Below, one piece after another: positions 20,288 through 56,037 of a DNA stretch of 64,000 nucleotides; the first letter of the stretch is position 1; each line of letters begins with the position of its first letter. The position numbers were made by a program, and so were the translations under genes. Source of the DNA: Halorhodospira halophila (GTDB lineage: Bacteria > Pseudomonadota > Gammaproteobacteria > Nitrococcales > Halorhodospiraceae); contig NZ_NHSN01000019.1 in the NCBI RefSeq assembly GCF_016653405.1, positions 48,733-112,732 on the forward strand, given 5' to 3'. The notes below the pieces were generated by a model. It did no database searches. It was not told the DNA's origin and saw nothing but the letters and a program-made list of their open reading frames with translations.

Positions 20288-21295
20288 ATGCGCGTCCTCG
20301 TTACGGGTGGCAGCGGTTATATCGGCAGTCACGCGGTGGTGGCCTTGATGGAGGCCGGTCATCAGGTCGTGGTCCTCGATAATCTGGAAAACAGTGCGGG
20401 CACGGTGGTCTCGCGGATCGAGCGGATCACCGGGCAGGCGCCCGATTTCATTGAGGGCGACCTCCGCGACGCAGATGCGCTCGAGAAGGTCTTCGCCAAC
20501 GCGTCCTTCGATGCCGTCATGCACTTTGCCGGCCTCAAGGCGGTGGGCGAGAGCGTGTCCCGTCCCCTCGCCTACTATGAGACCAATGTAGGCGGTACCG
20601 TGCGTCTCTGCCAGGCGATGGAGCGCGCCGGCGTGCGGCGGCTGATCTTCAGCTCCTCGGCGACCGTTTATGGAGACCCGGCCCGGGTGCCGATCGACGA
20701 GGACGCTGCCACCGGCGGCGTGACCAACCCCTACGGCCGCAGCAAGCACATGGTCGAGCAGATCCTGTTCGACCTAGGGCGCGCGGATCCGCGCTGGTCC
20801 ATCGGCATCCTGCGCTACTTCAATCCGGTCGGGGCCCACGAAAGCGCCTTGATCGGCGAGTCGCCCCGGGGGATCCCCAACAACCTGGTGCCGTACATCG
20901 CCCAGGTGGCCAACGGCGAGCGCGAGCAACTCAACGTTTTCGGCGACGATTACCCGACCTGGGACGGGACCGGGGTGCGCGACTACATCCATGTGGTCGA
21001 TCTGGTGGCGGGCCACCTGCGCGCGCTGGAGTTCCTTGAGGCACAGCCGGGCAGCCACGTCTGGAACCTGGGCCGCGGCGAGGGCTACAGCGTCCTGGAA
21101 ATGGTCCGTGCGTTCGAAGAGGCCAGCGGTCGGCCGGTCCCCTACCGGGTCACGGATCGCCGACCCGGCGACATTGCAGAGTGCTGGGCCGACCCGAGCA
21201 AAGCGGAACGGGAGCTCGGCTGGCGGGCCGAGCGGGACCTGGCCACGATGATGCGGGATACGTGGCGGTGGCAGCATAATCAACGGATTGGGTAA
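20288..21295 (+). CDS. galE: UDP-glucose 4-epimerase
   Basis: 335-residue short-chain dehydrogenase-type epimerase that interconverts UDP-glucose and UDP-galactose for glycan building. It has the NAD loop VTGGSGYIGSH (residues 5-15), SSSATVYGDP with the catalytic serine, the Tyr-x3-Lys pair in NPYGRSKHMVEQ, and the sugar-binding segment GVRDYIHVVDL. ATG 20288 is preceded by AAGGA. It is transcribed away from the Wza-like gene, and its 3' end overlaps the convergent gene at 21280 by 16 bases. Confidence 0.93.
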   Translation: MRVLVTGGSGYIGSHAVVALMEAGHQVVVLDNLENSAGTVVSRIERITGQAPDFIEGDLRDADALEKVFANASFDAVMHFAGLKAVGESVSRPLAYYETNVGGTVRLCQAMERAGVRRLIFSSSATVYGDPARVPIDEDAATGGVTNPYGRSKHMVEQILFDLGRADPRWSIGILRYFNPVGAHESALIGESPRGIPNNLVPYIAQVANGEREQLNVFGDDYPTWDGTGVRDYIHVVDLVAGHLRALEFLEAQPGSHVWNLGRGEGYSVLEMVRAFEEASGRPVPYRVTDRRPGDIAECWADPSKAERELGWRAERDLATMMRDTWRWQHNQRIG

Positions 21296-22071
21296 TTGCT
21301 TAGGGCTCGCTTCGGACGATGGATCAGTGTTCTTATGTATTGCCTCGACTCGTCTAACATCGCTTGCCATCCGCCCGTCCGGACGAAATCGACATGCACC
21401 ACCTGTAAACATGCGGGAACCATCGGAACACCGTAATATCGCGCAGCTGCGAGCCGGTGATTCCCGTTATCCCCCAAGATGAGCTGTCCAGTCCGCGAAA
21501 CCGCCAGTCCGATACCACCCCGCTCCCTGAACTGACCCTTCGTCGCCACACTCTGCGGAAGGAGATGGCGTCCAGACCAAACCACGGCGAACAATTCATC
21601 CAGTGCGCGGTATCGACGCACCAAATCTTTCAGTGACCGACAACCATCCTCCTCACCGCAGATGTGAATCAACCTCTTCATCAGGTCGATTTCACCCACC
21701 GCTTCCCAAGATTTTCCCGTTTCCAGCTTGCGGACTGTCCGCGCTACAATGCGGTTTTCCATTATTGGCAGAACCGCTTTATCCCAATCGCCCGGTACAA
21801 TCACGTTCGGGCCATGGAGCGGACGTGGACCAATCTGCACTTCTTCCGGGGAATAGACTTTGCTTAGAACTGGTGGCCGGGGGAGGATACTCAACGTTAA
21901 ACTGATTTGCTTCGTCGGCACATAAATCAGTTGGTACTTTTTGGGAGCATCTTTCCCGAACCGCAGAAAATTTTTAACATCTTCCCGATAAATACGAAGC
22001 GCCCATCGTGGATGACGACAGGATTCTGGCAAGAACGAAAGTCCCTTAACGTAGGCACCCAGCTTATCCAT
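21280..22071 (-). CDS. ParB/sulfiredoxin-fold-like protein of glycan cluster
   Basis: 263-residue protein of unknown function. Near the C-terminus, LILGDNGNHRLAAARYYGVPMVP resembles the GxHRxxAA loop of ParB/sulfiredoxin-like nucleotide-binding domains. The N-terminal half is basic and aromatic with no known domain. ATG 22071 has GGGAG 7 bases upstream. A related but broken gene lies at 55133-55842 (SGQHRFYIARALGVKRFP), so this family is used twice in the window. DNA here is A+T-richer than in galE next door, and the gene is paired with a sulfotransferase, suggesting acquisition as a glycan-decoration pair. A kinase-like or nucleotide-related role is possible but unproven. Confidence 0.6.
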   Translation of the reverse strand: MDKLGAYVKGLSFLPESCRHPRWALRIYREDVKNFLRFGKDAPKKYQLIYVPTKQISLTLSILPRPPVLSKVYSPEEVQIGPRPLHGPNVIVPGDWDKAVLPIMENRIVARTVRKLETGKSWEAVGEIDLMKRLIHICGEEDGCRSLKDLVRRYRALDELFAVVWSGRHLLPQSVATKGQFRERGGIGLAVSRTGQLILGDNGNHRLAAARYYGVPMVPACLQVVHVDFVRTGGWQAMLDESRQYIRTLIHRPKRALSNYPIR

Positions 22072-22098
22072 GCAAGCGCTCCCAACGCACCCCAAAAA

Positions 22099-22839
22099 CT
22101 AACGCGCGTTCTCGTAGATATCGAAGTCTTCACTGTACAGGTGCTCGACTCTTTTTTTCTGTTGCTTCGTCAAGGAGAAGCCAAACCTTTTATTCGATTT
22201 GTTTGTGTGCGGCACTTCAACCGGCGAATAATCTGAGACACCAGAAGCTTCGTAACATGCGGCAACCCCTTTTCTCATGCTCTCCATGCGATAGATGTTC
22301 GGGATGTTGAGTGCCCCTCCTAAGTCTTTAATATCATTCACCATCGGATTTGTGTGCGTGGAAAAGAGCAGACCATAAGGCTCAAAAATAGATTGCTGAC
22401 GACATGAATCCTGCTTATCTAGCATATCAAGAAAGACATCAAAACATTTTCTACTCGAAACCAGACATCTCGGATCCCGAGAAAAAAGACGAAGATTCGC
22501 CATCACCCTGCCCCTTGCCGTCATTCTTTTGGGCCAGATCAGGTGATAATACATGGACACCACACGGTCGTAGGGGTTTCTGGAGAAGGCGACTCGAAAC
22601 ATACTGTCCCATGTGTCCGGATAAAGATAGAGACGCGCAAACTCACTACGCCGGAACTGATAGGGGCCCAGTGGTGTTGTGTATGTATTCAGAATATCAT
22701 TCCATTCCTCACGTGGCCGCTGTATGAAACACGACGGCATCTTGAATCGTTCCGTGCAGGTATAAAGCCCTCCCAAAGCCTGACGCAGCGATGTACCCGC
22801 TGACTTTTTAATATGCAACCAAAAGATCCCGTTTGACAC
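22099..22839 (-). CDS. Sulfotransferase family 2 protein
   Basis: 246-residue enzyme expected to move sulfate from PAPS to a carbohydrate. It has the 5'-phosphosulfate loop IFWLHIKKSAGTSLRQ at the N-terminus and the 3'-phosphate motif RVAFSRNPYDRVVSMYYHL (about residues 80-98), as in carbohydrate sulfotransferases. GTG 22839 places the loop at the normal distance from the start; an in-frame GTG at 22896 would add 19 residues that include a run of nine G. That G9 tract sits directly upstream of the preferred start and may affect expression. It lies 27 bases before the ParB-like gene, so the two are likely cotranscribed. Confidence 0.75.
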   Translation of the reverse strand: MSNGIFWLHIKKSAGTSLRQALGGLYTCTERFKMPSCFIQRPREEWNDILNTYTTPLGPYQFRRSEFARLYLYPDTWDSMFRVAFSRNPYDRVVSMYYHLIWPKRMTARGRVMANLRLFSRDPRCLVSSRKCFDVFLDMLDKQDSCRQQSIFEPYGLLFSTHTNPMVNDIKDLGGALNIPNIYRMESMRKGVAACYEASGVSDYSPVEVPHTNKSNKRFGFSLTKQQKKRVEHLYSEDFDIYENAR

Positions 22840-22845
22840 ACCCCG

Positions 22846-22854
22846 CCCCCCCCC
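22846..22854. repeat. Homopolymer C9/G9 tract at the sulfotransferase start
   Basis: Nine consecutive C on the plus strand (G9 in the sense of the sulfotransferase gene), within a wider C-rich stretch. It sits immediately upstream of GTG 22839, or inside the coding region if GTG 22896 is used. Either position would allow slipped-strand length changes to alter expression. Confidence 0.6.
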
Positions 22855-23015
22855 TACCCCAAGAATCTTCCCGAAGGTAGCCCAATGACAAGACACGCCG
22901 CCGGTACCACCCTTCCGGTTCGGCCCCCACCATGATGGTAGCCGACGCAGGTGACCGCGCCACCCGAATCAATTGAATGGATGGTTGGAGCGAAGACGCG
23001 ATTAGGGTCTGCCCG

Positions 23016-24509
23016 CTACAGTGCGTCACCGGTGAGCCGGTCATTCGCCCGCCCATACAGATCTTCGAAGCGGACCAGATCGTCCTCTTCCAGGTAGGGG
23101 CCGGTCTGGATCTCGATGATCTGCAGCGGGATGCGGCCCGGATTCTCGAGCCGGTGGGGTCGCGTAGCGGGGACGTAGGTGGACTGGTTTTCCTCTAGGT
23201 AGATCTCCTCCTCGCCGTTGACCACGCGGGCCGTCCCGGCGATGACCACCCAGTGCTCCGAGCGGTGGTGGTGCATCTGTAAAGAGAGCTTACACCCGGG
23301 TTTGACCACGATCCGCTTGAGCTTGTAACGGTGGCCGCTCTCCAGGGTCGTGTAGCTGCCCCAGGGGCGCGCGACGGTGACGTGGTACTCGGCCAGCTCG
23401 GGGCGCTCGGCGGCGACCTGGGCGACCAGCGGCTTGAGGTCGGCCAGGCGCTCGCGCGGACAGACCAGTGTGGCGTCCCGGGTCTGCACCAGCGCCAGGT
23501 TCTCCACCCCGTAGGCGGCGAGCAGACCGCCGTCGGCACTCCACAGCAGGCTGTCGCGGCTGTCCACCGGCAGCGCCGGCCCATTGCAGACGTTGCCCCG
23601 TTCATCCTTGGCCCGCTCCTGGTAGAGGGCCTCCCAGCTACCCAGATCGCTCCAGCCCAGGTCCACGGGCACCACGGCCACTTTGTCCGCCCGCTCGACC
23701 AGCCCGTAGTCGATGGAGGTCTCGGGCAACTGGCCGTAAGCCGCTTCATCAGGTATGACGTCGCTCTCCACCCAGCCCTGGACCGCCTCGGCAATGGCCG
23801 GCTGGTGCTCCCGCAGCAGGTCCAGGAAACGGTCGGCCCGGAAGACGAACATGCCGCTGTTCCAGTAGTAGCCGCCGTTCTCGAGGAAGCGGCCCGCCGT
23901 GTCGGCATCCGGCTTCTCGACAAAGCTTCGGGCCTCCTCCACCCCGCCGGCCAGCGTCTCCCCGGCCTCGATGTAGCCGAACCCCGTCGCTGGCGCCGTG
24001 GGACGGACGCCGAAGAGGACCAGATGCCCAGCATCCGCCGCGTGCTCAGCCCGCTCCCAGGCCGCGAGGAGCGCCTCCGGCTCGCCGATGCGGTGGTCCG
24101 AGGGGAAGACACTGATGAGGGCATCTGGAGTCTGCCGGGCGATGCCGGCCACCGCCCAGGCGATGGCCGGAAGGGTGTTGCGGGCCGACGGCTCGGCGAG
24201 CACCCGCTCGGCCAGCGGTGCGGACACCTCGTGCAGTTGCCCTTTGACCTCGAAACGGTGGTCGGCATGGGTCACCGTGGTAATCCGCTCCGGCGCCAGA
24301 GCAGGCAGAAGCCGACCCGCAGTCTCCTGGAGCAGGGTCGCCTCCCCCGTCAGGGCCAACAGCTGTTTGGGCATATTCCGCCGGGAGAGCGGCCACAGGC
24401 GCGTCCCGGACCCGCCGGCGAGGATCACCGCATGACGCCGATCCGCCCGCGATACCTCCCCGGGCCCTTCCTCTTCCGCGCTGCTTGCGCCGCACACGCC
24501 GTCCGCCAT
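23016..24509 (-). CDS. manC: Mannose-1-phosphate guanylyltransferase / mannose-6-phosphate isomerase
   Basis: 497-residue bifunctional enzyme of the AlgA/ManC type that makes GDP-mannose. The N-terminal nucleotidyltransferase has AVILAGGSGTRLWPLSR, NMPKQ and FVEKPD; the C-terminal cupin isomerase has KLSLQMHHHRSEHWVVIAGTA and STYVPATRPHRLENPG. ATG 24509 has GAGG 6 bases upstream; ATG 24521 overlaps the stop of the previous gene as ATGA. It is the last gene of the minus-strand operon that starts with the twin-arginine protein, so GDP-mannose supply is tied to that cassette and probably to the same sigma-54 promoter. Confidence 0.9.
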   Translation of the reverse strand: MADGVCGASSAEEEGPGEVSRADRRHAVILAGGSGTRLWPLSRRNMPKQLLALTGEATLLQETAGRLLPALAPERITTVTHADHRFEVKGQLHEVSAPLAERVLAEPSARNTLPAIAWAVAGIARQTPDALISVFPSDHRIGEPEALLAAWERAEHAADAGHLVLFGVRPTAPATGFGYIEAGETLAGGVEEARSFVEKPDADTAGRFLENGGYYWNSGMFVFRADRFLDLLREHQPAIAEAVQGWVESDVIPDEAAYGQLPETSIDYGLVERADKVAVVPVDLGWSDLGSWEALYQERAKDERGNVCNGPALPVDSRDSLLWSADGGLLAAYGVENLALVQTRDATLVCPRERLADLKPLVAQVAAERPELAEYHVTVARPWGSYTTLESGHRYKLKRIVVKPGCKLSLQMHHHRSEHWVVIAGTARVVNGEEEIYLEENQSTYVPATRPHRLENPGRIPLQIIEIQTGPYLEEDDLVRFEDLYGRANDRLTGDAL

Positions 24510-24517
24510 CGCTGACC

Positions 24518-25657
24518 TCATCCATGCTGTTGTGGGTTGGCCGCCGCCCGGTCTTCGCCCGAATCATCCTCCCGCGGGGCCAGAAAGGCTTTGTAAAACA
24601 GATGCCGCGCCAGGAGCAACGGCGGCATCTTGAGCCAGTGGCCGCGGAGGAAAACGAGCGCCCGCGCCAGGGCATCCACCCAGGGGGTCGCAGAAACCCG
24701 GCCGTTCAAAGCGTGATGAAACATCCGCCGGCTGACCCAGCGCGCCGGCAGACTTGCCGCGTGATCATGCAGTCGCCGCTCTACGCTTTCCGGGACCAAG
24801 GTCCCGAAGCGGTGCTGGCAGCAACGGATCGCCGGCTCCATCAGCCAAGCCACCTGGAGCGCCTCCGCCTCGTTCAGGAGCTCCTCCCAGAACACTACGC
24901 CGTGCTGCGCCTCATAGTGCTCGATGAGGGTGTGGATATCGTAAAGGTCGCGGAGCCCGCGGTCCCAGTCGGTCTCCGAGAAGAGGTGGACGATGGCGTG
25001 CAGCACCAGGTGCCGGGGCGCCGGCAGCTGGAGGCGATCCATACCCCCGATGGGGCGCGCCGCGGACAAAAGTCGTTCCGGATCCACCGCCACGGCGAAG
25101 GTAGCGGGCAGGATGTTGTGGTGGAGATCGAGCGTCGTGCCGCGCTTGACGTGCTGCAGCGGCGGCAGCTCATGCATCCACTGGCGATAGTAACGCTGGT
25201 CGTAGGCCGAGTGGTGCGTACCGAACCAGCCCTCGTAAAAGAGCACCGCCTCCGCCCGTTCCACCTCGTCACGGCGAAAAAGCAGATCGATGTCCGCCGC
25301 GATGCGGCCGGCTGCGTTCGGCAGCCCCGCCAGAACGTAGGCGCCGCCCTTGAGGACCAGGGGCGGCGTGAGGTTGCGGATCAGCCCACTATCGAGCTGC
25401 TCGAGCTCCCAGCGCAGGGCGGCGGCGTTGGTCTCGGCAGTCAGCGCCGCCCCCCAAAGGTGGCGGGCCGCCCACTCCGGCAGGCGCTCGGCCACACCCG
25501 CCTCCATGGCGCGGTGCCAGAGGGCCCCGAGCAGCAGGTTCTCACGGCCGACGGCCAGCATCGCGGTCCACTCCCGCCCCGAGCGCTCCAACAACGAAGC
25601 TGGCTGTGCCAGGCCGTCACACAGAGCTTGGGTGGGATCCGGCTGCCAGTTCTTCAA
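24518..25657 (-). CDS. Nucleotidyltransferase family protein (NTP_transf_5-like)
   Basis: 379-residue protein of the nucleotidyltransferase group found with exosortase and RiPP-type clusters. The core shows LVLKGGAYVLAGLP (about residues 100-113), the metal-binding pair AADIDLLFRR (DxD, about 120-128) and LDLHHNILPATF further on. The substrate is unknown. Relatives occur beside HprK-like kinases in lasso-peptide clusters, where they act on phosphorylated peptide. The start is uncertain: TTG 25657 overlaps the kinase gene by 41 bases and no strong ribosome-binding site is seen. It is part of a four-gene cassette with the kinase, the PqqD-like protein and the Asn-rich secreted protein. Confidence 0.75.
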   Translation of the reverse strand: MKNWQPDPTQALCDGLAQPASLLERSGREWTAMLAVGRENLLLGALWHRAMEAGVAERLPEWAARHLWGAALTAETNAAALRWELEQLDSGLIRNLTPPLVLKGGAYVLAGLPNAAGRIAADIDLLFRRDEVERAEAVLFYEGWFGTHHSAYDQRYYRQWMHELPPLQHVKRGTTLDLHHNILPATFAVAVDPERLLSAARPIGGMDRLQLPAPRHLVLHAIVHLFSETDWDRGLRDLYDIHTLIEHYEAQHGVVFWEELLNEAEALQVAWLMEPAIRCCQHRFGTLVPESVERRLHDHAASLPARWVSRRMFHHALNGRVSATPWVDALARALVFLRGHWLKMPPLLLARHLFYKAFLAPREDDSGEDRAAANPQQHG

Positions 25658-26552
25658 AGATGGGGATCGCCTCTTCCAGTCGGCTGTAGCGGAAATCGTA
25701 GCCTTGCGCCTGCTCGACGATATCTACGGTCCGGTGGAACGCGCGGGCCCCGAGGGCGGCGTAGTTGAAGGAGTTCCGCGCCAACCCCATAAACGTTTCC
25801 CCCTCCGAGCGCTCGGTCAGAACCGCCGGAGCTTGCGGTTGATAGCGGGGGAAGACCACCCACGCAGGCGTCGCCGGCTCGTTCGCCCGGACCACACTAT
25901 CACGGGGCGGGCGCATGTGGGCCACCGACCCTTTCAAGGTATCGTGGCAGCGCTCACTGAGAAACGCATCCGGGGCAATGGCCTGGATCACATCGATGGA
26001 GGCGTTCTTCAGGCTCACCGGCCGACTTAGCCCCAAGACCCGCACCTCGCTACTCGCCAGATCAACCAGCGTGGCCTCGTCACTGAGCAGCCGCCAGCCG
26101 CTGCAGGCCAGCGCCGCACACAGGGTGCTTTTCCCCGACTCCGGCGGCGCCGGCATGATGAGGGCCCGGCCGTTCTTCTCCAGGCAGGCGGCATGAAAAA
26201 GTAGGAAGTGCTTAACTTGGGTCCCGATGCACCAGTTCAGCCCCCACTCAAGCATCGGGAAGGCCTGGTTGCGGGGGAGCGGCTTGAAGATATTCTTCCG
26301 GTCGGCGTAGAAGAGCGCTTGCGGTCGGTAAAAGCGCCGAAGCCCCAGGGGTTCCCGAACCTCGCAGAAGAAGTCCGCGCCATCCTCTGGCTCAATCACC
26401 CGATGATCAGCGTAGAGACGCCAAAGGCCTTCAGCAACACTACTCAGTCGGCTTTTGAGAAGGGAGCGCACCGGACCGGTTTGAACCAGCAGGCACCCTG
26501 CGGCGAGGCGACCCGACAAGTCGGCGTAACCCAATTCAGCTACCGACGTCAT
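25617..26552 (-). CDS. HprK-related kinase A
   Basis: 311-residue relative of HPr kinase/phosphorylase belonging to the HPr-rel-A system. The C-terminal kinase domain has a P-loop MPAPPESGKSTL (about residues 133-144) and the acidic LLSDEATLVD that corresponds to the catalytic strand of HPr kinase. The N-terminal 110 residues are specific to this group. No HPr protein is encoded nearby, so the target is probably another protein. The gene overlaps the PqqD-like gene by 17 bases and the nucleotidyltransferase by up to 41, indicating tight coupling. Inferred role: phosphorylating a peptide or protein presented by the PqqD-like chaperone. Confidence 0.85.
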   Translation of the reverse strand: MTSVAELGYADLSGRLAAGCLLVQTGPVRSLLKSRLSSVAEGLWRLYADHRVIEPEDGADFFCEVREPLGLRRFYRPQALFYADRKNIFKPLPRNQAFPMLEWGLNWCIGTQVKHFLLFHAACLEKNGRALIMPAPPESGKSTLCAALACSGWRLLSDEATLVDLASSEVRVLGLSRPVSLKNASIDVIQAIAPDAFLSERCHDTLKGSVAHMRPPRDSVVRANEPATPAWVVFPRYQPQAPAVLTERSEGETFMGLARNSFNYAALGARAFHRTVDIVEQAQGYDFRYSRLEEAIPIFEELAAGSHPSSV

Positions 26553-26853
26553 CGCAATGTTCGCAAATCAAGCCGATCTCCATGAGGGAATTCAAAGCTG
26601 ATGCGAGACGCTCTCGCTCTGCGCGCTCCTCCTGCTCCTCGTTGAAAAGCCTTAAGAACTCCGATTCGTAAGCCGGCGACTTAGCATTGAGCACAGTTAA
26701 GATGCCAACCACCTCTCCCGGTAAAACGTAGGTGCCCCCCATGCCGACAGTATAAATGAACCCAAAATTTCCCACCACCCGGTATTCCAGCCCGGAACCC
26801 TCTCCCGTCCGCGAGAAGCAGGCGGAAGACAAATAAAAGAGCCTTGGCTTCAC
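26536..26853 (-). CDS. HPr-rel-A system PqqD family peptide chaperone
   Basis: 105-residue PqqD/RRE-like protein. PqqD-type domains bind leader peptides and hand them to modifying enzymes. The predicted winged-helix pattern is present: VVGNFGFIYTVGMGGTYVLPGEVVGILTVLN followed by a charged helix (EEQEERAERERLASALNSLMEIGLI). The start is GTG 26853, 13 bases after the stop of the Asn-rich protein gene. The 3' end overlaps the kinase gene. The candidate client is the protein encoded just upstream. Confidence 0.75.
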   Translation of the reverse strand: MKPRLFYLSSACFSRTGEGSGLEYRVVGNFGFIYTVGMGGTYVLPGEVVGILTVLNAKSPAYESEFLRLFNEEQEERAERERLASALNSLMEIGLICEHCDDVGS

Positions 26854-26866
26854 GCCCTGCTAGCAC

Positions 26867-27562
26867 TCAGTCCAACAAGAAGTCAAAAAAACAGTCTTTC
26901 TCGTAACAGGAGTTTCCATTGATTGTGTTTTTAAAAAAAGCAGCCACTCCATCCTTAGACAACTCATCTCCAGTGCCCGGTATTTTGTAGTATCCATTAT
27001 CGAGAGCATCTGTAACCATTTCTCTAATCTGTTCTGACCCAGGACCCAAATATTCGACAGATGAATCGGTACTACTCATATAGGCAGCGGATCCAAAGCG
27101 GATCACCCTCCGATCCGAATCACTTACCTTATAACCATTTTTCTTTACAATATTATTGTTGTTTCCATGGGCAGCGTAACTCAAATTGAGAGAGTTACCG
27201 TTATCGTCTGTATACGTGCCTGAACTATACTCAAAGACGTCATTGAAATCTTCCTCCTTAGCATCGTCGGACCCCCCGCCATTACCTTCGTTACCCCAAT
27301 ACCCTGTGCTCTTCCCATTGCAATTAACAGCATCTCCGTGGCGCGATACGTTCCCCGAAACCCATCCGGAGGGGTTACAATTGCCACCGTTTCCATTACT
27401 TGCTCTAAGCGGGTTGCTGTAGAGCGTCATCAGCACGGGCACACTACCCAGCGCCGCCTGGCTAAAGCGCCGGCGCGACATACCCCGGCTCGGGGAGGCG
27501 TTGTCCTGCTCTTTCGCGTCGGGGCGCGGCTCGGGGGTCTGATTGCGCTCGTGTTCCGTCAT
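26867..27562 (-). CDS. Asn/Gly-rich twin-arginine secreted protein, candidate client of HPr-rel-A system
   Basis: 231-residue protein without a family I recognise. A hydrophilic, Pro/Glu-rich leader (residues 1-28) is followed by a twin-arginine-like signal, SRRRFSQAALG (29-39), and a hydrophobic stretch. The mature part is rich in Asn, Gly, Ser and Asp (NGNGGNCNPSG, GNEGNGGGSDD, GNNNNIVKK), with two cysteines near the C-terminus (CYEKDCFFDFLLD). ATG 27562 has GAGGGA 7 bases upstream; TTG 27577 is less likely. The gene is A+T-richer than its neighbours. A sigma-54-like promoter and conserved upstream element precede it. It probably is exported folded and modified by the kinase and nucleotidyltransferase downstream. 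Confidence 0.65.
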   Translation of the reverse strand: MTEHERNQTPEPRPDAKEQDNASPSRGMSRRRFSQAALGSVPVLMTLYSNPLRASNGNGGNCNPSGWVSGNVSRHGDAVNCNGKSTGYWGNEGNGGGSDDAKEEDFNDVFEYSSGTYTDDNGNSLNLSYAAHGNNNNIVKKNGYKVSDSDRRVIRFGSAAYMSSTDSSVEYLGPGSEQIREMVTDALDNGYYKIPGTGDELSKDGVAAFFKNTINGNSCYEKDCFFDFLLD

Positions 27563-47585: not shown

Positions 47586-48377
47586 ATGACCACCCCTGTC
47601 CACCTCATGCGCGTACTCCCGGCCCTCTTGCGCCCCTATAGGCGCATCTTCCTGCTGAGCCACATGCGCGCCTACACAAGCCTCTTCGGCCACATCCTGG
47701 GCTCACACCCAGACATTGAGGGGTATTACGAGCTCCAGATCGGTTACCACAGCTGGCGCAGCCTGATTCGCCAGAAGCTGCACTACTTCTACTACCACGA
47801 CCATTCCCCGAAACCCCGAGCGCAATACCTGCTGGACAAGATCCTGCACAACGGCCACCGACTCGACGCATCCATCTTGGACCGCCCGGGTGATGTCTAT
47901 GTGTTTTGCCTACGTCCCCCCGAAGAGACGATCCCTAGCATCATCCAGCTCTATCAGCGGCTCGCGCCCGGACATCAGTGGACGACCGAATCCGGGGCCT
48001 TCGACTATTACATGAGCCGACTCACGGGGCTCGAGCACTTATCTGAGACCTTGCGCGGTCGATACCTATATATAGACGCCGAGTGCCTTACCAACGACAC
48101 AACTCGCGCCCTGGCGTTTCTAACCGACAACCTGAACCTGGCGACGCCTTTAGAGCCCGAATACCACCGTGGACCGATGACGGGCCACCCTTACCGCGGC
48201 GATCCGTCGGAACGGATCGACTGCGGACATGTCATAAGCACACCGTCAACCAAACCTCCGATCAACGATCATCGACACCTAACCGAAGCCATTACGCGTT
48301 ATCATACTGTCCGTCGACAGCTAGCGGGCGGCTGTGAATCGGCGTTTTTCTATGACTCACCCAACCGGCAGTCCTAA
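47586..48377 (+). CDS. Sulfotransferase-like protein
   Basis: 263-residue protein with a degenerate sulfotransferase P-loop region: IFLLSHMRAYTSLFGHILGSHPDIEGYYELQIGYHSW (in two parts, residues 20-57) follows the R-S-G-T-T-L-L...HP-x-I-x-G pattern, but the Gly-Thr pair is altered. FCLRPPEETIPSIIQLY may be the 3'-phosphate segment. It starts 3 bases after the GT2 stop, so it is cotranscribed. It may sulfate the glycan, but the altered loop leaves activity in doubt. Confidence 0.6.
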   Translation: MTTPVHLMRVLPALLRPYRRIFLLSHMRAYTSLFGHILGSHPDIEGYYELQIGYHSWRSLIRQKLHYFYYHDHSPKPRAQYLLDKILHNGHRLDASILDRPGDVYVFCLRPPEETIPSIIQLYQRLAPGHQWTTESGAFDYYMSRLTGLEHLSETLRGRYLYIDAECLTNDTTRALAFLTDNLNLATPLEPEYHRGPMTGHPYRGDPSERIDCGHVISTPSTKPPINDHRHLTEAITRYHTVRRQLAGGCESAFFYDSPNRQS

Positions 48378-48468
48378 TATGCCTTGGCTCTTGGCACAAG
48401 CCGTCAGTCGAACATCCCTGCACAACTCTGACCCTTTATAAGCTCCGCCGCCAGCCGGGAACGCCTTC

Positions 48469-49533
48469 ATGTCAAGCAGCGCACACACGCCCCAACGAAT
48501 TCTCTTTGTCACTGGCCATGGACACCTCCCTGAACTTATCGGCGGTATGGAGGTAAACACCCACCGACTTGCGCTTAACCTAAAATCACGCGGCCACCAC
48601 GTCGCCGTCCACTGCGCCCTATTAGGACGCGGGATCCTCGGATCCATCTCGCGCCTCCGCCGCAGAGTGTTCAACCATAACACAGTAACCGACCACTACC
48701 TATCCTACCCAGTGACCCGCGCCTGGAACCCCGAAACTTCTATTGGCCACACGATAACGCGTTTTCAGCCTGATGTCTGCATTCTTCAGGGTGGCGTCAA
48801 GGCATCCGCTTTTATTAAAAAACTTACCTCTCTATCCCAGCCTTTTCTCTATTATCAGCACAATCCACAACCACTGGACAAAAAAGCACTTGACTCGAGC
48901 CACTTTTTTATAATAACAAACTCCACTTACACGTCGTCCTTCTATGCCGCCGATCGCGTCCTCGAGATCATCCCCCCAATCGTCGAACCCTGTCTCTACA
49001 AAACAGAGACAGACTCCTCCCATATACTTTTCGTAAACCCTGCTCCTCACAAGGGGCTTGACATCGCTCTGGACCTGGCCCACCAACGCCTGGATATCCC
49101 TTTCCTTTTTTTGCGGCAAACACGTGAGCAGCTCAGAAGTGAAACCCTGCCGCCCAACGTACGCCTTTGCGGACCGTACCGTGATACTCGCAAAGCCTAT
49201 GGTCGTGCCGGCTTACTGCTGGCCCCATCGCAGTGGGACGAAACCTGGGGACGGGTAGTATCAGAAGCTCAATGCACGGGCATACCGGCACTGACCTCTG
49301 ACTCTGGCGGGCTGCCAGAAGCCGTCAGCAACGGGGGGCTATGCGTACCTCGCCACGCGCCTTACACCGATTGGCGCTGCGCCCTCTCAAAAATTTGGGA
49401 TAACCCAGCTCAATATCAACAACTTAGCACCCTATCCAAGTTCAACTCCCAACGAGGTCCGTGCGCCCCCGGCAGTGTTATCAAAAAAATGATGCACACC
49501 ACCCATTTCATTCAAAAAACCTATAAAACTTGA
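48469..49533 (+). CDS. Family 4-like glycosyltransferase
   Basis: 354-residue GT-B enzyme. The N-terminus has ILFVTGHGHLPELIGGMEVNTHRLALNL, the donor-site region HILFVNPAPHKGLDIALDLA, and LLLAPSQWDETWGRVVSEAQCTGIPALTSDSGGLPEAV with the conserved E-x7-E-like motif of GT4 enzymes. ATG 48469 is the first start after a 91-base gap. A+T content begins to rise here compared with genes to the left. Confidence 0.82.
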   Translation: MSSSAHTPQRILFVTGHGHLPELIGGMEVNTHRLALNLKSRGHHVAVHCALLGRGILGSISRLRRRVFNHNTVTDHYLSYPVTRAWNPETSIGHTITRFQPDVCILQGGVKASAFIKKLTSLSQPFLYYQHNPQPLDKKALDSSHFFIITNSTYTSSFYAADRVLEIIPPIVEPCLYKTETDSSHILFVNPAPHKGLDIALDLAHQRLDIPFLFLRQTREQLRSETLPPNVRLCGPYRDTRKAYGRAGLLLAPSQWDETWGRVVSEAQCTGIPALTSDSGGLPEAVSNGGLCVPRHAPYTDWRCALSKIWDNPAQYQQLSTLSKFNSQRGPCAPGSVIKKMMHTTHFIQKTYKT

Positions 49534-49545
49534 ACCATTTTCCTT

Positions 49546-50079
49546 ATGCATTGTCTTATGAAAGAAGACCGTTTAGCTCCCCTACCTGGCCGCGTTCAGA
49601 GCGGTCGAGGTATCGCTACGCTCCACTGCTGCAACCATTCAAAAGAAATTGAATCTGCTCTAGGATACTCACCTTATCCCGGGTCCTTGAATATCATCCT
49701 TGATCAGCCAGTCCGTCTAGCGCTGGAAAACGCATACGTATTCGATCATGGCCACCGTTATCTCTGGCAGGCGAGACTTTTAAAACATCCGGTCTTCCTG
49801 TACCGCTGGGACTTGACTCCCTTACACATCTGCGAGATTATTGCAGATAGAAACCTACGCTCATACTTTCACTTTCAGGATGGTGACCGGGTTACGATAG
49901 AAGTCGGAAAATGCATCCCACATGCCCCTGATATATTTTCCAAGGCCGGGTGGTTTTTTCTATGGTTTGGGCGGAAAAAATGGTTTTACACCTCGGACCA
50001 CTATGAGCGATGGACTCGCTACTATACTTGGCGCCTAGGAGCGGCCCAAAAACCCTGGACCCTATCGCGTACCGATTAA
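49546..50079 (+). CDS. Archaeal riboflavin kinase-like (DUF120/RibK fold) protein
   Basis: 177-residue protein whose core resembles CTP-dependent riboflavin kinase of archaea. LPGRVQSGRGIATLH aligns with the G-x-V-x-SG-x-G strand, IESALGYSPYPGSLNIILD with the F/Y-x-PYxGTLN nucleotide/metal loop, and HICEIIADRNLRSYFHFQDGDRVTIEV with the C-terminal EIIAPxxLR...LKDGD strand. Bacterial riboflavin kinase is unrelated, so this is unusual here. It lies 12 bases after one glycosyltransferase and before another; it may phosphorylate a sugar or other polyol from CTP. Starts ATG 49546 or 49558 are both possible. Confidence 0.7.
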   Translation: MHCLMKEDRLAPLPGRVQSGRGIATLHCCNHSKEIESALGYSPYPGSLNIILDQPVRLALENAYVFDHGHRYLWQARLLKHPVFLYRWDLTPLHICEIIADRNLRSYFHFQDGDRVTIEVGKCIPHAPDIFSKAGWFFLWFGRKKWFYTSDHYERWTRYYTWRLGAAQKPWTLSRTD

Positions 50080-50133
50080 ATCTAGGCAATACCTTCACGG
50101 TTTCTGCCCGATTGCCCCACGAGGAACCGAGAA

Positions 50134-51081
50134 ATGGCGGAACGGACAATAAACTCGAAAAACCGAATTCACCTCCTTCTCTGTGCAAACAATGGGTTTG
50201 CCCAGCATGCGGCGGTCACATTAGCGTCAACTTTGATTAACAACCCTGAGGACAACTTTAACGTAACCGTTGTCGGCGACCTCTCACGATCATCCCAGGA
50301 AAATTTGCGGATCGTTTCAAATTTGTCAGCCAACACTTTTCTGAGATTTTTGACTCTCTCTGAAATATGGGAAATAGATGATAATTCCAGAATTCCTGAG
50401 TATCTTCCAACTCAAGGCGAAAAAAGAGTCAAAGGCGCTTACAGCGTCGACATTTACACAAGGCTTCTTATTAGTAGGATATATAGCGAGAAAATTAATA
50501 AGGTCCTTTACCTGGACAGCGACATCGTTGTCGACGGCTCTTTACGCCCTCTTTGGGAAACAAACATTGAGCCTTATCCGGTAGCAGGGGTTCGTGTACC
50601 ATACTTCGACCGAAACCACCTACCAAACCTATCTCCTGGCGACCCGTATATCAACTCGGGCGTTCTGTTATACAACCTGCCTCAATGGCGCAGGCAACAG
50701 TGTGAGCGACGATGCCTCGACTTCCTAAGAAAACATTCCGAATCCGTTCGTGACCCGGACCAAGATGCTTTGAACGAAACATTGCGCGGGAACATATTTT
50801 TTTTAGAAAAAAAATGGAACACGTTCGGGGCCTATGCGCGCGAGGAACATGCCGAATTAGACAAAAGGTACCGGCCGGTAATTTACCACTACAACGGCGC
50901 GAACAAGCCATGGCTCTACATGTCGAACCACCCCCAGAAAGATTTGTACTACCGCTATCTCCGCGAGACACCATGGAAAAACTACACACCGCCGGATAAA
51001 ACCCTTATTAAAGCGGGCCGAAAGGTCATTGCATCCCTTTTCCCAACACGACTTAGACGTTTACCAAAGAAATTTTTATAA
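50134..51081 (+). CDS. Family 8 glycosyltransferase
   Basis: 315-residue GT-A enzyme. It shows HLLLCANNGFAQHAAVTLASTL at the N-terminus, the DxD motif in KVLYLDSDIVVDGSLRPLW (about residues 124-142), YINSGVLLYNLPQW, DPDQDALNETL and the third metal ligand region IYHYNGANKPW. Family 8 enzymes transfer galactose, glucose or related sugars in lipopolysaccharide and capsule cores. The gene is visibly A+T-rich and contains adjacent T8 and A8 runs at about 50797-50814, within codons for FF-L-EKK. Confidence 0.87.
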   Translation: MAERTINSKNRIHLLLCANNGFAQHAAVTLASTLINNPEDNFNVTVVGDLSRSSQENLRIVSNLSANTFLRFLTLSEIWEIDDNSRIPEYLPTQGEKRVKGAYSVDIYTRLLISRIYSEKINKVLYLDSDIVVDGSLRPLWETNIEPYPVAGVRVPYFDRNHLPNLSPGDPYINSGVLLYNLPQWRRQQCERRCLDFLRKHSESVRDPDQDALNETLRGNIFFLEKKWNTFGAYAREEHAELDKRYRPVIYHYNGANKPWLYMSNHPQKDLYYRYLRETPWKNYTPPDKTLIKAGRKVIASLFPTRLRRLPKKFL

Positions 51082-51278
51082 CCGCTCGCCACATCGATTA
51101 CTTTTTCTTGCTCAGCTGGACTCACCTATTCTTGTGCGTAAGCAGAACCAATTACCTCAAGGGCTTGACAAATTTTGACACATTCCGAGTATACGACAGA
51201 TTAATTAGCCAATAAAATTTCCCACGAAGCCCGAAAAAAAACATGGACACCTACCAGGCAATATAGAGATTTATAAAA

Positions 51279-52214
51279 ATGGTTGACGCGGTGGTAACAT
51301 GGGTCGACGGCTCTGATCCAGAGTATAAAAAAAAGCGCTCCAAGTGGCTCGCGCGGCGTGACCCGGAGGTTGGGGAGAAAAGTACGGCAAGGCACGAGAC
51401 GAGGTGGAACTCCGTTTTTGAGCTCTACTATTGCCTTCATCTAATAAGGAAAAATGCCCCTTGGGTGCGCACAATTTTTTTGGTTACAGATAATCAAAAG
51501 CCCGGGTGGCTGACGGAAGATATCGCGACGAGGCTTGGTGTTGAAATAGTGGATCATACAACTATCTTCTCAGGGCACGAGTGGGCTTTGCCAACGTTTA
51601 ACTCCACCGCTATTGAAACGATGCTTCATCGCATACCAGGCCTTTCCGATCGTTATCTTTATTTTAATGATGACACGTTCCTAATCAGACCCACATCAAA
51701 GGACGACTACTTTTCTGAGGGTATGCCGAAGTGGCGGGGCTGGGAACGGCGTGCGAACGAACAGGCTCTACGGTATCTGGCGCTCTGGATAACGACTGGG
51801 ATAAAAAAAGACGGTTTTATCGGGGGAAGAAAAGAGAAAGAACTTCTTGGGGTCACCTCCCCTTTTTTTCTTGGCCATGCCCCGCACCCATTCCTTAAGC
51901 ATTACACCAGACGGGTCATCGAAACGGATAACCGGCTCGAATCTAATATTGCCTATAAATTCAGAACCTGGGACGGCTTTAATCCCGCAATGCTTGTTGC
52001 CAATGCTGGACTCAACGAGGAAAAGGCCGCAAAGGGACCGGATGACTGGGAAAATATAGAGCCGAAACATGGTACCAAGGGGATTCGAAAACGTCTTTCG
52101 CGGTGTAAGAGAAAGAATCATATCAAGACGGTTTGCATCCAATCGATCGATGTGATGCCAGTTCATCTTCAAAATGAAGTGGAATTTTTTTTAAGCGCTT
52201 CATTATGTTCATAA
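51279..52214 (+). CDS. Stealth-family sugar-phosphate transferase
   Basis: 311-residue protein of the Stealth family, related to GlcNAc-1-phosphotransferase. Conserved region 1 is at the N-terminus (DAVVTWVDGSDPEY). Region 2 contains ETRWNSVFELYYCLHLIRKNAPWVRTIFLVTDNQKPGWL and YLYFNDDTFLIRPT. A later conserved part includes GHAPHPFLKHYTRRVIE. Stealth proteins add hexose-1-phosphate to capsular polysaccharides, so a phosphodiester-linked branch in the glycan is likely. ATG 51279 starts right at region 1. The gene is A+T-rich and is convergent with three minus-strand glycosyltransferases. Confidence 0.87.
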   Translation: MVDAVVTWVDGSDPEYKKKRSKWLARRDPEVGEKSTARHETRWNSVFELYYCLHLIRKNAPWVRTIFLVTDNQKPGWLTEDIATRLGVEIVDHTTIFSGHEWALPTFNSTAIETMLHRIPGLSDRYLYFNDDTFLIRPTSKDDYFSEGMPKWRGWERRANEQALRYLALWITTGIKKDGFIGGRKEKELLGVTSPFFLGHAPHPFLKHYTRRVIETDNRLESNIAYKFRTWDGFNPAMLVANAGLNEEKAAKGPDDWENIEPKHGTKGIRKRLSRCKRKNHIKTVCIQSIDVMPVHLQNEVEFFLSASLCS

Positions 52215-52253
52215 CCGCCTCGAAAACCTTTAGCAGGCATTATTTCAACTCCA

Positions 52254-53096
52254 TCAAAGAAGCCCAAAGTAATCAATGACGTTCTGCATTTGTTGGTCAT
52301 TTTTTCCATGGGATACGTTTAGTTTAGCCAACGAAGGCGAAAAAAAATGTAGCCCTAATGGCCGAACGTCATGCTGCCCTAAACAGACCACTCGAGAACC
52401 CGAGACCTGTGCCACAGCCCAAAAATAGATGTCATCAGCCGTTGGACACAACTTAGCCGCGAGCTCATAGTCAAGCAGGAGGTTTTTGTCCAAGCAGCCT
52501 GGTGGGTAAAGTATGCCCCCCGCGCCTGTTAATAGAACTTGCCTCCCTTCTTTTCGTCGCCTAATCGGATACCATTTATTGTACGAAGCGCAACCGTGCG
52601 CTGAATGAAGAATTTCCCAGCCACGATGCCCGATAACCGCATCTCGTTCGCGCTCGGCCGCTACAATAAGATCCTCGAGCACTGTTGGTTCATAAAAAAC
52701 ATCATCATCGATTGTAATAATCGTCGCGTCAGGATATAACTCTCGCGTTGGAAGCAACTTCTTGTAGCTTTTTAGATTTTTTTCAACCCATAAGATTTCG
52801 AGGCCTCGGTTTTGCTGCTCCTTTAAAGTTGAAGGCATGCTTCGCTCTTTAAACTCACATCGGGAAAGCACGAGCACAATTTTCCCAGGCCGGTGGCTTT
52901 GCCAGAACATAGTCTCTATGGCGACCCATGCATGCCGAATCCGCTGCGGGAAACTCGTCAAACTTACAATGACATCTTGGTTGCCTGAAAGAACCGGTTT
53001 TTTTCTTTCTCTTTTAAAGCGTAATATGCCCCTTTGATTCTGGATTTCTTTTTTTATTCTGTCCTGATAATATTTAAATCTACGGCGTAAAGACAT
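52254..53096 (-). CDS. Glycosyltransferase-like protein
   Basis: 280-residue protein, probably a GT-A glycosyltransferase. IVSLTSFPQRIRHAWVAIETMF (about residues 43-64) is the nucleotide-sugar strand typical of this group, and TIITIDDDVFYEPTVLEDL carries the DDD metal site. GHRGWEILHSAHGCASYNKW and TADDIYFWAVAQ follow. ATG 53096 has AGAGG just upstream and gives a basic N-terminus typical of these proteins; ATG 53210 would add 38 residues and overlap the preceding gene by 25 bases. It is the last of three co-oriented A+T-rich genes. Confidence 0.75.
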   Translation of the reverse strand: MSLRRRFKYYQDRIKKEIQNQRGILRFKRERKKPVLSGNQDVIVSLTSFPQRIRHAWVAIETMFWQSHRPGKIVLVLSRCEFKERSMPSTLKEQQNRGLEILWVEKNLKSYKKLLPTRELYPDATIITIDDDVFYEPTVLEDLIVAAERERDAVIGHRGWEILHSAHGCASYNKWYPIRRRKEGRQVLLTGAGGILYPPGCLDKNLLLDYELAAKLCPTADDIYFWAVAQVSGSRVVCLGQHDVRPLGLHFFSPSLAKLNVSHGKNDQQMQNVIDYFGLL

Positions 53097-53185
53097 TTGC
53101 CTCTTCTCGCTTTCTTTAATCTGGCGGCTTCGGCTTTTTGCCTCCAAGGCTGACTCAACGAAATCGGACGCTAATTCGAAACAAG

Positions 53186-54058
53186 TCAGTATCTTGAGGG
53201 GTTGGTCCATCCGCGTATGATCGCTATTTTGACACAGGTATTATAAATTTTTAGAAAATAACTGATCGGGATAAGCGCAATCTTCTCGTACAAAGTAATT
53301 TTTTTTGAGTAGACAATTGTGCGCCATTCCCAAAATGGCGGCATAAAACCCTTGAGCAAAAAAACCGGTTGTCTCGTTGTTTTTGATGTTATCGGGAAAC
53401 TTCCAGCGGTACGCTTCCGCTTTATCAAAAGATCTTTGAGCGATTTGCGCGCGGGATGTTTTACTATAGCATGGGGGGCGTAAACGATGTTTAAACCTGC
53501 GCCTGATGCCCTATGGCTCCACTCCGTATCACCGCCGGAGAAAAGGGTGGCATCAAATTCGCCAACGTAATCGAAGCAGTAACGCCAGCAAGCCATATTC
53601 GCTGTAACGGATTTGCCGGACTTAGCCATTATTTTTTGGTTGAACGAAAACAGAATCTCGTAGGCTTCCGCTATTGTCCTTTTTTTGCTTGTGCAGAACA
53701 ATACTATACGTCCTGCAATCCGGTCATTTCCTTTAGCTAGACAAATTACTGAGTTTTGAAGCCACTCTGGGTCGGGCACACAGTCCGAATCAGTAAAAGC
53801 GAATACTTGACCTCCAGCGTGCTTTATGCCCGTATTCCTAGCGATGTACGATCCCGGGGTCGTTTCTTTCTTTAAAACCGCGTTATCAGGGAGTTTTATT
53901 GAAAAATGGTTATTTTCTTTCTCATCGTTATCGACAATAATTATCTCAAAGTCTTCCGCAGGGTAGGTCTGATTTTGGAGCGCGTCTAAGCATTTCTGCA
54001 GCCGTTTCTCATCACGATACGTGGGTATGATAACGCTAACGAAAGGATTGGATTCCAT
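53186..54058 (-). CDS. Family 2 glycosyltransferase
   Basis: 290-residue GT-A enzyme. It shows VSVIIPTYRDEKRLQKCLDAL, IIIVDNDEKE, TPGSYIARNTGIKHAGGQVFAFTDSDCVPDPEWL with the metal-binding DSD, and FDATLFSGGDTEWSHRASGAG (the ED/GDTEW segment). The last 60 residues are hydrophobic and basic, suggesting membrane association. ATG 54058 (AAGGG upstream) is preferred to an earlier in-frame start at 54082. A+T-rich relative to the rest of the window. Confidence 0.85.
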   Translation of the reverse strand: MESNPFVSVIIPTYRDEKRLQKCLDALQNQTYPAEDFEIIIVDNDEKENNHFSIKLPDNAVLKKETTPGSYIARNTGIKHAGGQVFAFTDSDCVPDPEWLQNSVICLAKGNDRIAGRIVLFCTSKKRTIAEAYEILFSFNQKIMAKSGKSVTANMACWRYCFDYVGEFDATLFSGGDTEWSHRASGAGLNIVYAPHAIVKHPARKSLKDLLIKRKRTAGSFPITSKTTRQPVFLLKGFMPPFWEWRTIVYSKKITLYEKIALIPISYFLKIYNTCVKIAIIRGWTNPSRY

Positions 54059-54224
54059 TTCATTGCCCTTGGGCGTCAACACAAGTGTATACGAGCGGTC
54101 AGCCGCTTTCTGAACATGCTGACGTTTTTAGCATTAGCTAACTCGGTCTGCAGGCGGCATCACGGCCATCCAAGGTGGTCGCATTTGAACGGTGGCATGC
54201 AAAAATCGCCGATTCCAGCCGCCA

Positions 54225-55013: not shown

Positions 55014-55132
55014 CGAGATTCCCCTAGCCCCCAAAATTGGGTACATGGTTCTATACCCACGCGGAATGTGTTAAATCCTACCTGTCTTCACCTTCGTCCA
55101 TTTGAGTCGTGCCTTCTTATTTTCTTAACCAA

Positions 55133-55842: not shown

Positions 55843-56037
55843 ATAAACCCCTACGAATCAGTCCGTCCCGCCGGCACGCAGGCAGGTTTTGGTGAGCCAA
55901 GCAGTAAGCACCGACAGCCCCGGGCGCACTAGAGAGATGATGACACCATAAGGTTTCGGGCTAGCTAGATTGCAGACCCACCAGTAGTGACCCACTACCC
56001 CCTTCCTTATTTTTTTCCTCGGTCTCGGGAAAAGCAC

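What the first reader, a model, noticed from the sequence alone, without database searches (positions are those of the whole stretch)
23016..27562. HPr-rel-A cassette: possible undescribed protein-modification system with its client
Five co-oriented genes: an Asn/Gly-rich twin-arginine protein, a PqqD/RRE-like chaperone, an HprK-related kinase, a nucleotidyltransferase and a GDP-mannose-forming enzyme, most overlapping. In lasso-peptide clusters HprK-like kinases phosphorylate the precursor and nucleotidyltransferases act on the phosphorylated product; PqqD-like domains present leaders. Here the client candidate is a 231-residue protein with a 28-residue hydrophilic leader before its export signal. 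A phospho- or glyco-modified secreted matrix protein is a concrete hypothesis.
Basis: partly seen in the sequence, partly recalled or inferred. Interest (0 to 1): 0.88.

Follow-up and report, generated by a model that had tools for sequence, protein, structure and literature searches.

The report
Kinase cassette with obligate exported client
Across proteobacteria, a little-studied kinase gene is nearly always found with a gene for a protein that is likely exported: these proteins vary widely but keep a similar signal leader and one conserved serine, which the kinase is predicted to phosphorylate before a partner enzyme would cap the phosphate; if true, a whole class of secreted proteins carries an unseen modification.

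Summary
Of 177 unique kinase loci, 165 carry a client in the cluster, and all strong client hits (30 genomes of 369, 36 of 398) lie in kinase genomes. Asn-richness and ManC are not conserved. Conserved are a twin-arginine leader and a serine: of 78 aligned type I clients, like this one, only Arg31 and Ser69 are invariant, Ser69 within C-x2/3-S-G-x2-S-G-N-x-S just behind the leader; type II clients have an unrelated mature part, but C-x-x-S-[hydrophobic] lies in the last 45 residues of 45 of 48 (shuffles 4%; type I tails 0 of 114). One split of the kinase tree separates the two types. Pfam and NCBIfam have no model for the client; its predicted fold found no PDB match. Likely mechanism: PqqD-like protein holds the leader, kinase phosphorylates the serine, nucleotidyltransferase caps the phosphate, Tat exports. 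Nearest relatives are paeninodin-type lasso peptides and Bacillota linear polyphosphorylated peptides (2026); here the clients are whole proteins of Pseudomonadota. Modification and export were not observed; the recognition step rests on weak similarity.

The parts
26867..27562 (-). Client protein, type I (231 aa)
   Evidence: single-sequence search found 6 proteins, the two named ones from Halorhodospira and Ectothiorhodospira; family-wide through profile A2; no Pfam or NCBIfam model matched more than one of 78 relatives, and those only at E 0.004 or worse
27401..27562 (-). Leader of the client (residues 1-54): variable hydrophilic start, then SRRRF...PVLMTLYSNPLRA (Arg30, Arg31, Thr46, Leu47, Ser49, Pro51)
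   Evidence: Arg30 107/108, Arg31 108/108, Thr46 T/S/A 107/109, Leu47 L/V/I 102/109 across type I clients; residue letters checked; the cleavage point itself is inferred
27344..27379 (-). Candidate acceptor motif C62-N-P-S65-G-W-V-S69-G-N-V-S73
   Evidence: C62 108/108, S65 107/109, S69 108/109 plus one Thr, S73 98/109; in the 33 rows that no motif filter had picked: S69 32 plus one Thr, S65 31; in the 78-row alignment A2 only R31 and S69 are invariant; that it is the acceptor is inferred
26870..27298 (-). GYW-type mature domain of the client (about residues 89-231)
26536..26853 (-). PqqD-like protein, predicted leader-binding (RRE-type) chaperone, divergent
   Evidence: TIGR04353 18.5 bits, below cut-off; the other 27 of 28 aligned members match TIGR04353 at E<=0.001; family profile's two best PDB hits are lasso B1 proteins, E 0.06
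25617..26552 (-). HprK-related kinase A, predicted to phosphorylate the client
   Evidence: TIGR04352 369.5 bits; His120, Lys141, Asp158, Glu159 invariant in 30 kinases and aligned with the HprK stretch that holds the same residues; AlphaFold2 pLDDT 95.6 with PEPCK/HprK fold
24518..25657 (-). PF14907 nucleotidyltransferase, predicted to act on the phosphorylated client
   Evidence: PF14907 179.3 bits; homolog in 114 of 114 first loci and in 65 of 85 later ones, mostly type II; of the 20 genomes without it nearby 18 have one elsewhere; K103, G104, Y107, R118, D122, D124 invariant in 106 of 106 aligned
23016..24521 (-). ManC (mannose-1-phosphate guanylyltransferase/isomerase): co-directional neighbour, not part of the conserved cassette
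   Evidence: TIGR01479 534.2 bits; homolog in 10 of 114 loci, 3 of the 61 long ones

Best explanation
The cassette encodes a dedicated client protein together with the enzymes predicted to modify it: the PqqD-like protein likely holds the client's leader, the HprK-related kinase would phosphorylate the conserved serine (Ser65 or Ser69 in this client), the nucleotidyltransferase would then cap that phosphate with a nucleotide or sugar, and the twin-arginine leader would send the folded, likely disulfide-bonded product out of the cytoplasm. Shown here: the gene set and order, the near-obligate pairing of kinase and client, the shared leader, the conserved serine in otherwise unrelated mature parts, the intact active-site residues of both enzymes, and the match of client type with kinase clade. 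Inferred: leader binding by the PqqD-like protein, which serine is the acceptor, the chemistry of the second step, Tat export, and any role outside the cell (the cassette often, not always, lies near exopolysaccharide genes).
For: Pairing: 40 of 41 kinase genomes in a class sample of 369 have a client beside the kinase, the other is cut by a contig end; 61 kinase genomes in a phylum sample of 398: 51 beside the kinase, 2 cut by contig ends, 8 not adjacent, and in 7 of those 8 a client hit was then found in the genome, one of them weak, E 3.4e-6. Specificity: all 30 genomes with a client hit at E<=1e-19 and all 36 with a type II hit at E<=1e-8 are kinase genomes. Target: R31 and S69 are the only invariant residues of 78 type I clients at 14% mean column identity; type II invariants (21 rows) are R39, R40, L42, P51, T55 and tail S174; the strict tail motif is in 45 of 48 type II clients, 4.3% of shuffles and 0 of 114 type I tails, and in 7 of 7 type II clients fetched later. 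Five proteins with the GYW domain but no leader have no such Ser motif before it. Client types are split by one branch of the kinase tree, FastTree support 100, shuffled mean 41.6 changes. Enzymes; the nucleotidyltransferase stays in the genome even where it has left the cluster, 18 of 20, against 2 of 14 control genomes. Precedent: lasso kinases phosphorylate a conserved Ser of the precursor through a His-Lys-Asp-Asp motif and PsmN adds hexoses to the phosphoserine (PMC9266682, passages); LppK polyphosphorylates one Ser and its recognition domain binds the leader (PMC13381572). Export: even cysteine number in the mature part in 86 of 113 type I and 44 of 48 type II clients, where chance gives about half.
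Confidence: 0.62

Rival explanations
1. The PqqD-like protein, kinase and nucleotidyltransferase act as an ATP-dependent quality-control or loading complex for a Tat substrate: they hold the leader until the client has folded, and release it, without leaving a lasting modification.
For: The leader is the only part shared by type I and type II clients besides the Cys/Ser motif; cysteine-paired, folded clients would suit Tat.
Against: A binding-only role does not explain a conserved Ser at opposite ends of the mature part in the two client types nor a fully conserved nucleotidyltransferase active site in 106 of 106.
Confidence: 0.15
2. The conserved Cys and Ser of C-x2/3-S are joined: the kinase phosphorylates the serine, the phosphate is eliminated and the cysteine closes a thioether ring, as in class III lanthipeptides.
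For: Cys and Ser are conserved together in both client types; kinase-driven dehydration is known for lanthipeptides (start of the abstract of PMC10604976 in the listing).
Against: No lyase or cyclase among the cassette genes; cysteine numbers of the mature parts are mostly even, pointing to disulfides; three type II clients keep the serine but lack the motif cysteine.
Confidence: 0.07
3. The client is a substrate of the exopolysaccharide machinery: the phosphoserine is only a primer to which a polysaccharide of the XrtA-type locus is attached.
For: The window cassette sits inside an XrtA/PEP-CTERM exopolysaccharide locus; 24 of 61 loci of at least 14 kb have a homolog of one of five of its specific genes; LPP clusters of Bacilli also lie in capsule loci.
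Against: 37 of 61 such loci show no such homolog; some Thiobacillus loci have an upstream gene that I read by eye as a housekeeping methyltransferase (not searched).
Confidence: 0.12

Closest known systems
Linear polyphosphorylated peptides (LPP) of Bacillota, PMC13381572 (Nat Commun 2026; sections 6 and 12 and passages seen)
   Same: Discrete recognition domain, HprK-like kinase and NTP transferase beside a precursor with conserved N-terminal leader and variable remainder; one Ser is (poly)phosphorylated; clusters in capsular polysaccharide loci; 1-3 precursors per cluster.
   Different: LPP precursors are 35-200 aa, Bacillota only, with a SipW-type peptidase, an MsbA-like exporter and a YxxP leader; here many clients exceed 200 aa, the hosts are Pseudomonadota (one Malonomonas locus besides), the leader has Arg-Arg and almost never YxxP, and no peptidase or exporter was found as a conserved part.
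Paeninodin-type lasso peptides (PadeK/ThcoK, PsmK/PsmN), PMC9266682 (passages seen)
   Same: Kinase acting on a conserved C-terminal Ser of the precursor; nucleotidyltransferase homolog adding hexoses to phosphoserine; the C-terminal Ser parallels type II clients.
   Different: No macrolactam cyclase or B2 protease in the cassette; clients are proteins with signal leaders, not short knotted peptides.
HPr-rel-A system as named in NCBIfam (TIGR04352, TIGR04353)
   Same: Same kinase family (over cut-off) and same kind of PqqD-type partner; the name is NCBI's.
   Different: No NCBIfam or Pfam model covers the clients (78 type I, 21 type II scanned; single weak hits only), and no paper in the searched library uses the family or system names; client, its two types and the Ser motif are described here.
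SynChlorMet cassette kinase ScmC (TIGR04249)
   Same: Related kinase domain (E 5.9e-7).
   Different: Only a local match, far below cut-off; the content of that cassette is recalled, not tested.

Membership tests
HPr-rel-A system (NCBIfam) | Kinase over the TIGR04352 cut-off | tested here: met
   369.5 bits against 200
HPr-rel-A system (NCBIfam) | PqqD-family chaperone TIGR04353 beside the kinase | tested here: inconclusive
   Window protein 18.5 bits against cut-off 35, but same place and alignable with 27 relatives that all match at E<=0.001
HPr-rel-A system (NCBIfam) | PF14907 nucleotidyltransferase behind the kinase (recalled as part of the system) | tested here: met
   179.3 bits; 114 of 114 first loci, 65 of 85 later ones
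Linear polyphosphorylated peptides | HprK-like kinase, discrete recognition domain, NTP transferase | tested here: inconclusive
   Kinase and NTP transferase present; recognition domain only by weak profile similarity to lasso B1
Linear polyphosphorylated peptides | YxxP motif in the leader | tested here: not met
   1 of 161 clients
Linear polyphosphorylated peptides | SipW-type signal peptidase in the cluster | tested here: inconclusive
   None among the five cassette genes and 24 further window proteins scanned; not every window gene was scanned
Linear polyphosphorylated peptides | MsbA-like exporter in the cluster | tested here: not met
   An MsbA-like ABC protein lies 14 kb away, with homologs in only 5 of 114 loci, 4 of the 61 long ones
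Phosphorylated lasso peptides | Macrolactam cyclase and B2 protease genes | tested here: not met
   Absent from the cassette genes
Phosphorylated lasso peptides | His-Lys-Asp-Asp catalytic motif of the kinase | tested here: inconclusive
   His120, Lys141, Asp158 invariant, fourth residue is Glu159 in all 30 kinases
Tat substrate | Twin arginine followed by a hydrophobic stretch | tested here: met
   Arg30 107/108 and Arg31 108/108
Tat substrate | Export by the Tat pathway | not testable with these tools
   Needs fractionation with and without Tat; TAT signal models gave no hit at E<=0.01
HprK/PEPCK superfamily | Shared fold and P-loop | tested here: met

The most novel reading that the evidence does not exclude
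HPr-rel-A is a protein-scale counterpart of phosphorylated RiPPs: one leader format and one kinase/nucleotidyltransferase pair modify whole secreted proteins of unrelated sequence at a single conserved serine, placed either just behind the leader or at the very C-terminus, giving Pseudomonadota a class of exported proteins carrying a phosphate-linked nucleotide or sugar, perhaps used to tie protein to exopolysaccharide.
Probability: 0.4. Interest if true: 0.9.

Novelty: new variant of a known kind. Interest (0 to 1): 0.77.

Why it matters
41 of 369 genomes of the class sample and 61 of 398 of the phylum sample carry this kinase, yet its client has no model in Pfam or NCBIfam and no paper was found under its name. 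The work names the probable substrate, the probable target residue and two substrate classes, so a kinase with no known job becomes testable with one mass-spectrometry experiment. If right, leader-guided phospho-modification, known for small peptides, extends to whole exported proteins.

Tried and rejected

Limits and dropped rows. Genome searches score only part of their first-look candidates (6 per genome at most, 8, 9). The type I profile was seeded with 76 clients picked by a regular expression that asks for the leader and a Cys/Ser pattern; conservation in the 33 unpicked rows is given apart. Left out of the 191-locus table: low-scoring matches L007-L009 and loci L134-L182; 14 loci with a duplicate kinase core were merged, and two rows were set by hand (L237 to type I, L236 to none); L244-L252 came later and count only in the phylum tally. 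A2 holds 78 chosen rows, not all clients; the one Thr at position 69 (L115) is not among them. In the first kinase tree 10 type II rows dropped out through a motif filter; it was repeated with them, without L046, L065 and L195, and with long-branch warnings. TIGR04353 and PDB tests of the PqqD-like family used 28 rows, mostly type I loci. Paper searches by name returned nothing; subscription papers and bioRxiv are not in that library.
Full report
What is there. Five minus-strand genes stand at 23016-27562 as described. The kinase is HprK-related kinase A (TIGR04352, 369.5 bits), the next enzyme a PF14907 nucleotidyltransferase, the last ManC; the PqqD-like protein is a divergent relative of TIGR04353 (18.5 bits, cut-off 35); the 231-residue first protein matches nothing. 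The window lies in a 2.86 Mb genome. A same-genus genome has its kinase on a contig of the same length as the Halorhodospira neutriphila record, so the source is Halorhodospira-like. In the family sample the kinase is over its cut-off in 6 of 12 genomes: patchy even among relatives. The cassette is embedded in an XrtA/PEP-CTERM exopolysaccharide locus with PrsT, PrsR, PrsK, an EpsB-type transferase, an export protein and a putative O-ligase.

The client is conserved. In a class sample, 41 of 369 genomes have the kinase over its cut-off. Reading the DNA in front of each kinase shows a client in 40; in the last the contig ends first. A scan of named genomes gave the 80 loci nearest to the window's kinase, many of Thiobacillus and Massilia, one of Malonomonas. 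With a phylum sample (61 of 398 genomes with the kinase) and the family of one genome (12 of 36 over cut-off), 191 loci with 177 unique kinase cores were tabulated: 114 type I clients upstream, 3 type I downstream of a nucleotidyltransferase, 48 type II clients upstream, 10 with none adjacent, 2 cut by contig ends. For the phylum sample alone: 51 of 61 adjacent, 2 contig ends, 8 not adjacent. Those 8 genomes were then searched as wholes with the type II profile: 7 had a hit. Five lie on another contig, one sits beside the kinase on the opposite strand, one is a weak hit upstream (E 3.4e-6), and one genome (G613) had none. The genome of the Nitrosospira locus without a client (L052) has a hit to the domain part near a contig start (E 1.7e-18), which may or may not be a client.

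It is specific. The type I profile hits 50 of 369 genomes at E<=0.001. The 30 genomes with E<=1e-19 all have the kinase over cut-off. Of the other 20, eight have the kinase as well; four hold only the GYW domain; six hold only the leader, in short peptides, and these six also have a more distant HprK-like match (E 1e-10 or better); two are weak and were not confirmed. The type II profile hits 36 of 398 genomes at E<=1e-8 and all 36 are among the 61 kinase genomes.

What the clients share. Among type I clients Arg30 is 107/108, Arg31 108/108, Cys62 108/108, Ser65 107/109, Ser69 108/109 with Thr in the other, Ser73 98/109, Cys81 106/108. Because 76 of these were seeds picked with a motif filter, the other 33 count more: Ser69 32 plus one Thr, Ser65 31, Cys62 32. 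In the 78-row alignment with 14% mean column identity only Arg31 and Ser69 are invariant. Five proteins with the same GYW domain but no leader match the profile only from position 84 on, and the 60 residues before their GYW show no SGxxSGNxS: the motif travels with the leader, not with the domain. Type II clients share the leader, which was also used to find them, but have an unrelated mature part; 45 of 48 have C-x-x-S-[hydrophobic] in their last 45 residues (4.3% of shuffles; 0 of 114 type I tails), as do 7 of 7 fetched later. The other three replace the cysteine and keep the serine, but the relaxed pattern is common by chance (27%). In a 21-row type II alignment the invariant columns are two arginines, Leu42, Pro51, Thr55 and the tail Ser174. 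The shortest client, 74 residues, is little more than leader plus ACISCNASLI. Thus two unrelated kinds of protein have only the leader and a Cys/Ser motif in common, which is what leader-binding and modifying enzymes would need to see.

Kinase and client go together. On a FastTree tree of 174 kinases, type I (115 rows) and type II (48 rows) are separated by a single change, support 100, against a shuffled mean of 41.6. Relatedness of the hosts contributes to this, so it shows a faithful pairing rather than proof of recognition.

The client outside the cell. The mature domain is predicted with confidence (pLDDT mostly above 90 for residues 101-210) and has no PDB relative in these searches. Even cysteine counts in 86 of 113 type I and 44 of 48 type II clients suggest disulfides, hence export, and speak against a thioether ring at the motif cysteine. 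The twin-arginine motif suggests Tat, but no TAT model hit any of 78 type I or 21 type II clients at E<=0.01.

How it most likely works. By precedent, a lasso-type kinase phosphorylates a conserved Ser of a leader-bearing precursor, a nucleotidyltransferase homolog adds hexoses to the phosphoserine (PMC9266682, passages), and in LPP clusters the recognition domain binds the leader while LppK polyphosphorylates one Ser (PMC13381572, sections 6 and 12 and passages). The HPr-rel-A cassette has the same kinds of enzyme. I therefore infer leader capture, Ser phosphorylation, capping by the nucleotidyltransferase, and export. The leader differs: YxxP is in 1 of 161 clients and P-x3-[TS][hydrophobic] in 27 of 113 type I and 34 of 48 type II. 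Short peptides near more distant HprK-like kinases do have Y-x-A-P followed by an LTL-type stretch and a GS dipeptide behind the leader, and their leader lines up with the client leader by eye, which makes a common origin plausible.

Novelty. NCBI named the kinase and PqqD families, but neither NCBIfam nor Pfam models the clients, and paper searches for the names returned nothing. The kind, kinase plus nucleotidyltransferase acting on a leader-bearing precursor, is known; whole exported proteins as clients, two client classes with the target at opposite ends, and the Pseudomonadota setting make it a new variant.

Noticed in passing
L137, L169, L170, L171, L172, L173, L174: Short peptides (57-87 aa) with an Arg-Arg leader, then Y-x-A-P-x-[VI]-[LM]-T-L and a GS dipeptide behind it, one to three per stretch (one reads as 66 aa); in L137, L169, L170, L172 and L173 beside an HprK-like kinase far below the TIGR04352 cut-off, in L170 with a PqqD-like ORF too. 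They look like a peptide-sized relative of this system.
   Followed up: partly
L177, L178, L179, L180, L181: The GYW...AALLNA domain of type I clients also occurs in other, mostly larger proteins with no Arg-Arg leader, no Ser motif before it and no kinase on the fetched stretch.
   Followed up: partly
L182 905-2101 (genome G307): A second, orphan type I client away from the kinase in a genome that also has the full cassette.
   Followed up: no
L085 (Thiobacillus MAG): Two kinases and two nucleotidyltransferases around a single client.
   Followed up: no
L065 (Thiobacillus MAG): Kinase gene split by frame while client and nucleotidyltransferase read through; assembly error or pseudogene not distinguished.
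   Followed up: no
L244, L248, L249: In these loci a 566-aa ORF, not a PF14907 nucleotidyltransferase, follows the kinase directly on the same strand; the nucleotidyltransferase lies elsewhere in the genome. The 566-aa ORF was not identified.
   Followed up: no
window 11823-48377: XrtA/PEP-CTERM exopolysaccharide locus (PrsT, PrsR, PrsK, EpsB-type transferase, export protein, PLP decarboxylase, putative O-ligase) that surrounds the cassette.
   Followed up: partly
window 48001-56000: G+C falls to 45-53% from about 65%, a possibly acquired stretch; content not examined.
   Followed up: no
window 22099-22896 and 21280-22095: A Sulfotransfer_2 family protein and an unassigned ORF behind ManC on the same strand; no homolog of either was found in 114 kinase loci, of which 61 are at least 14 kb long.
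   Followed up: no
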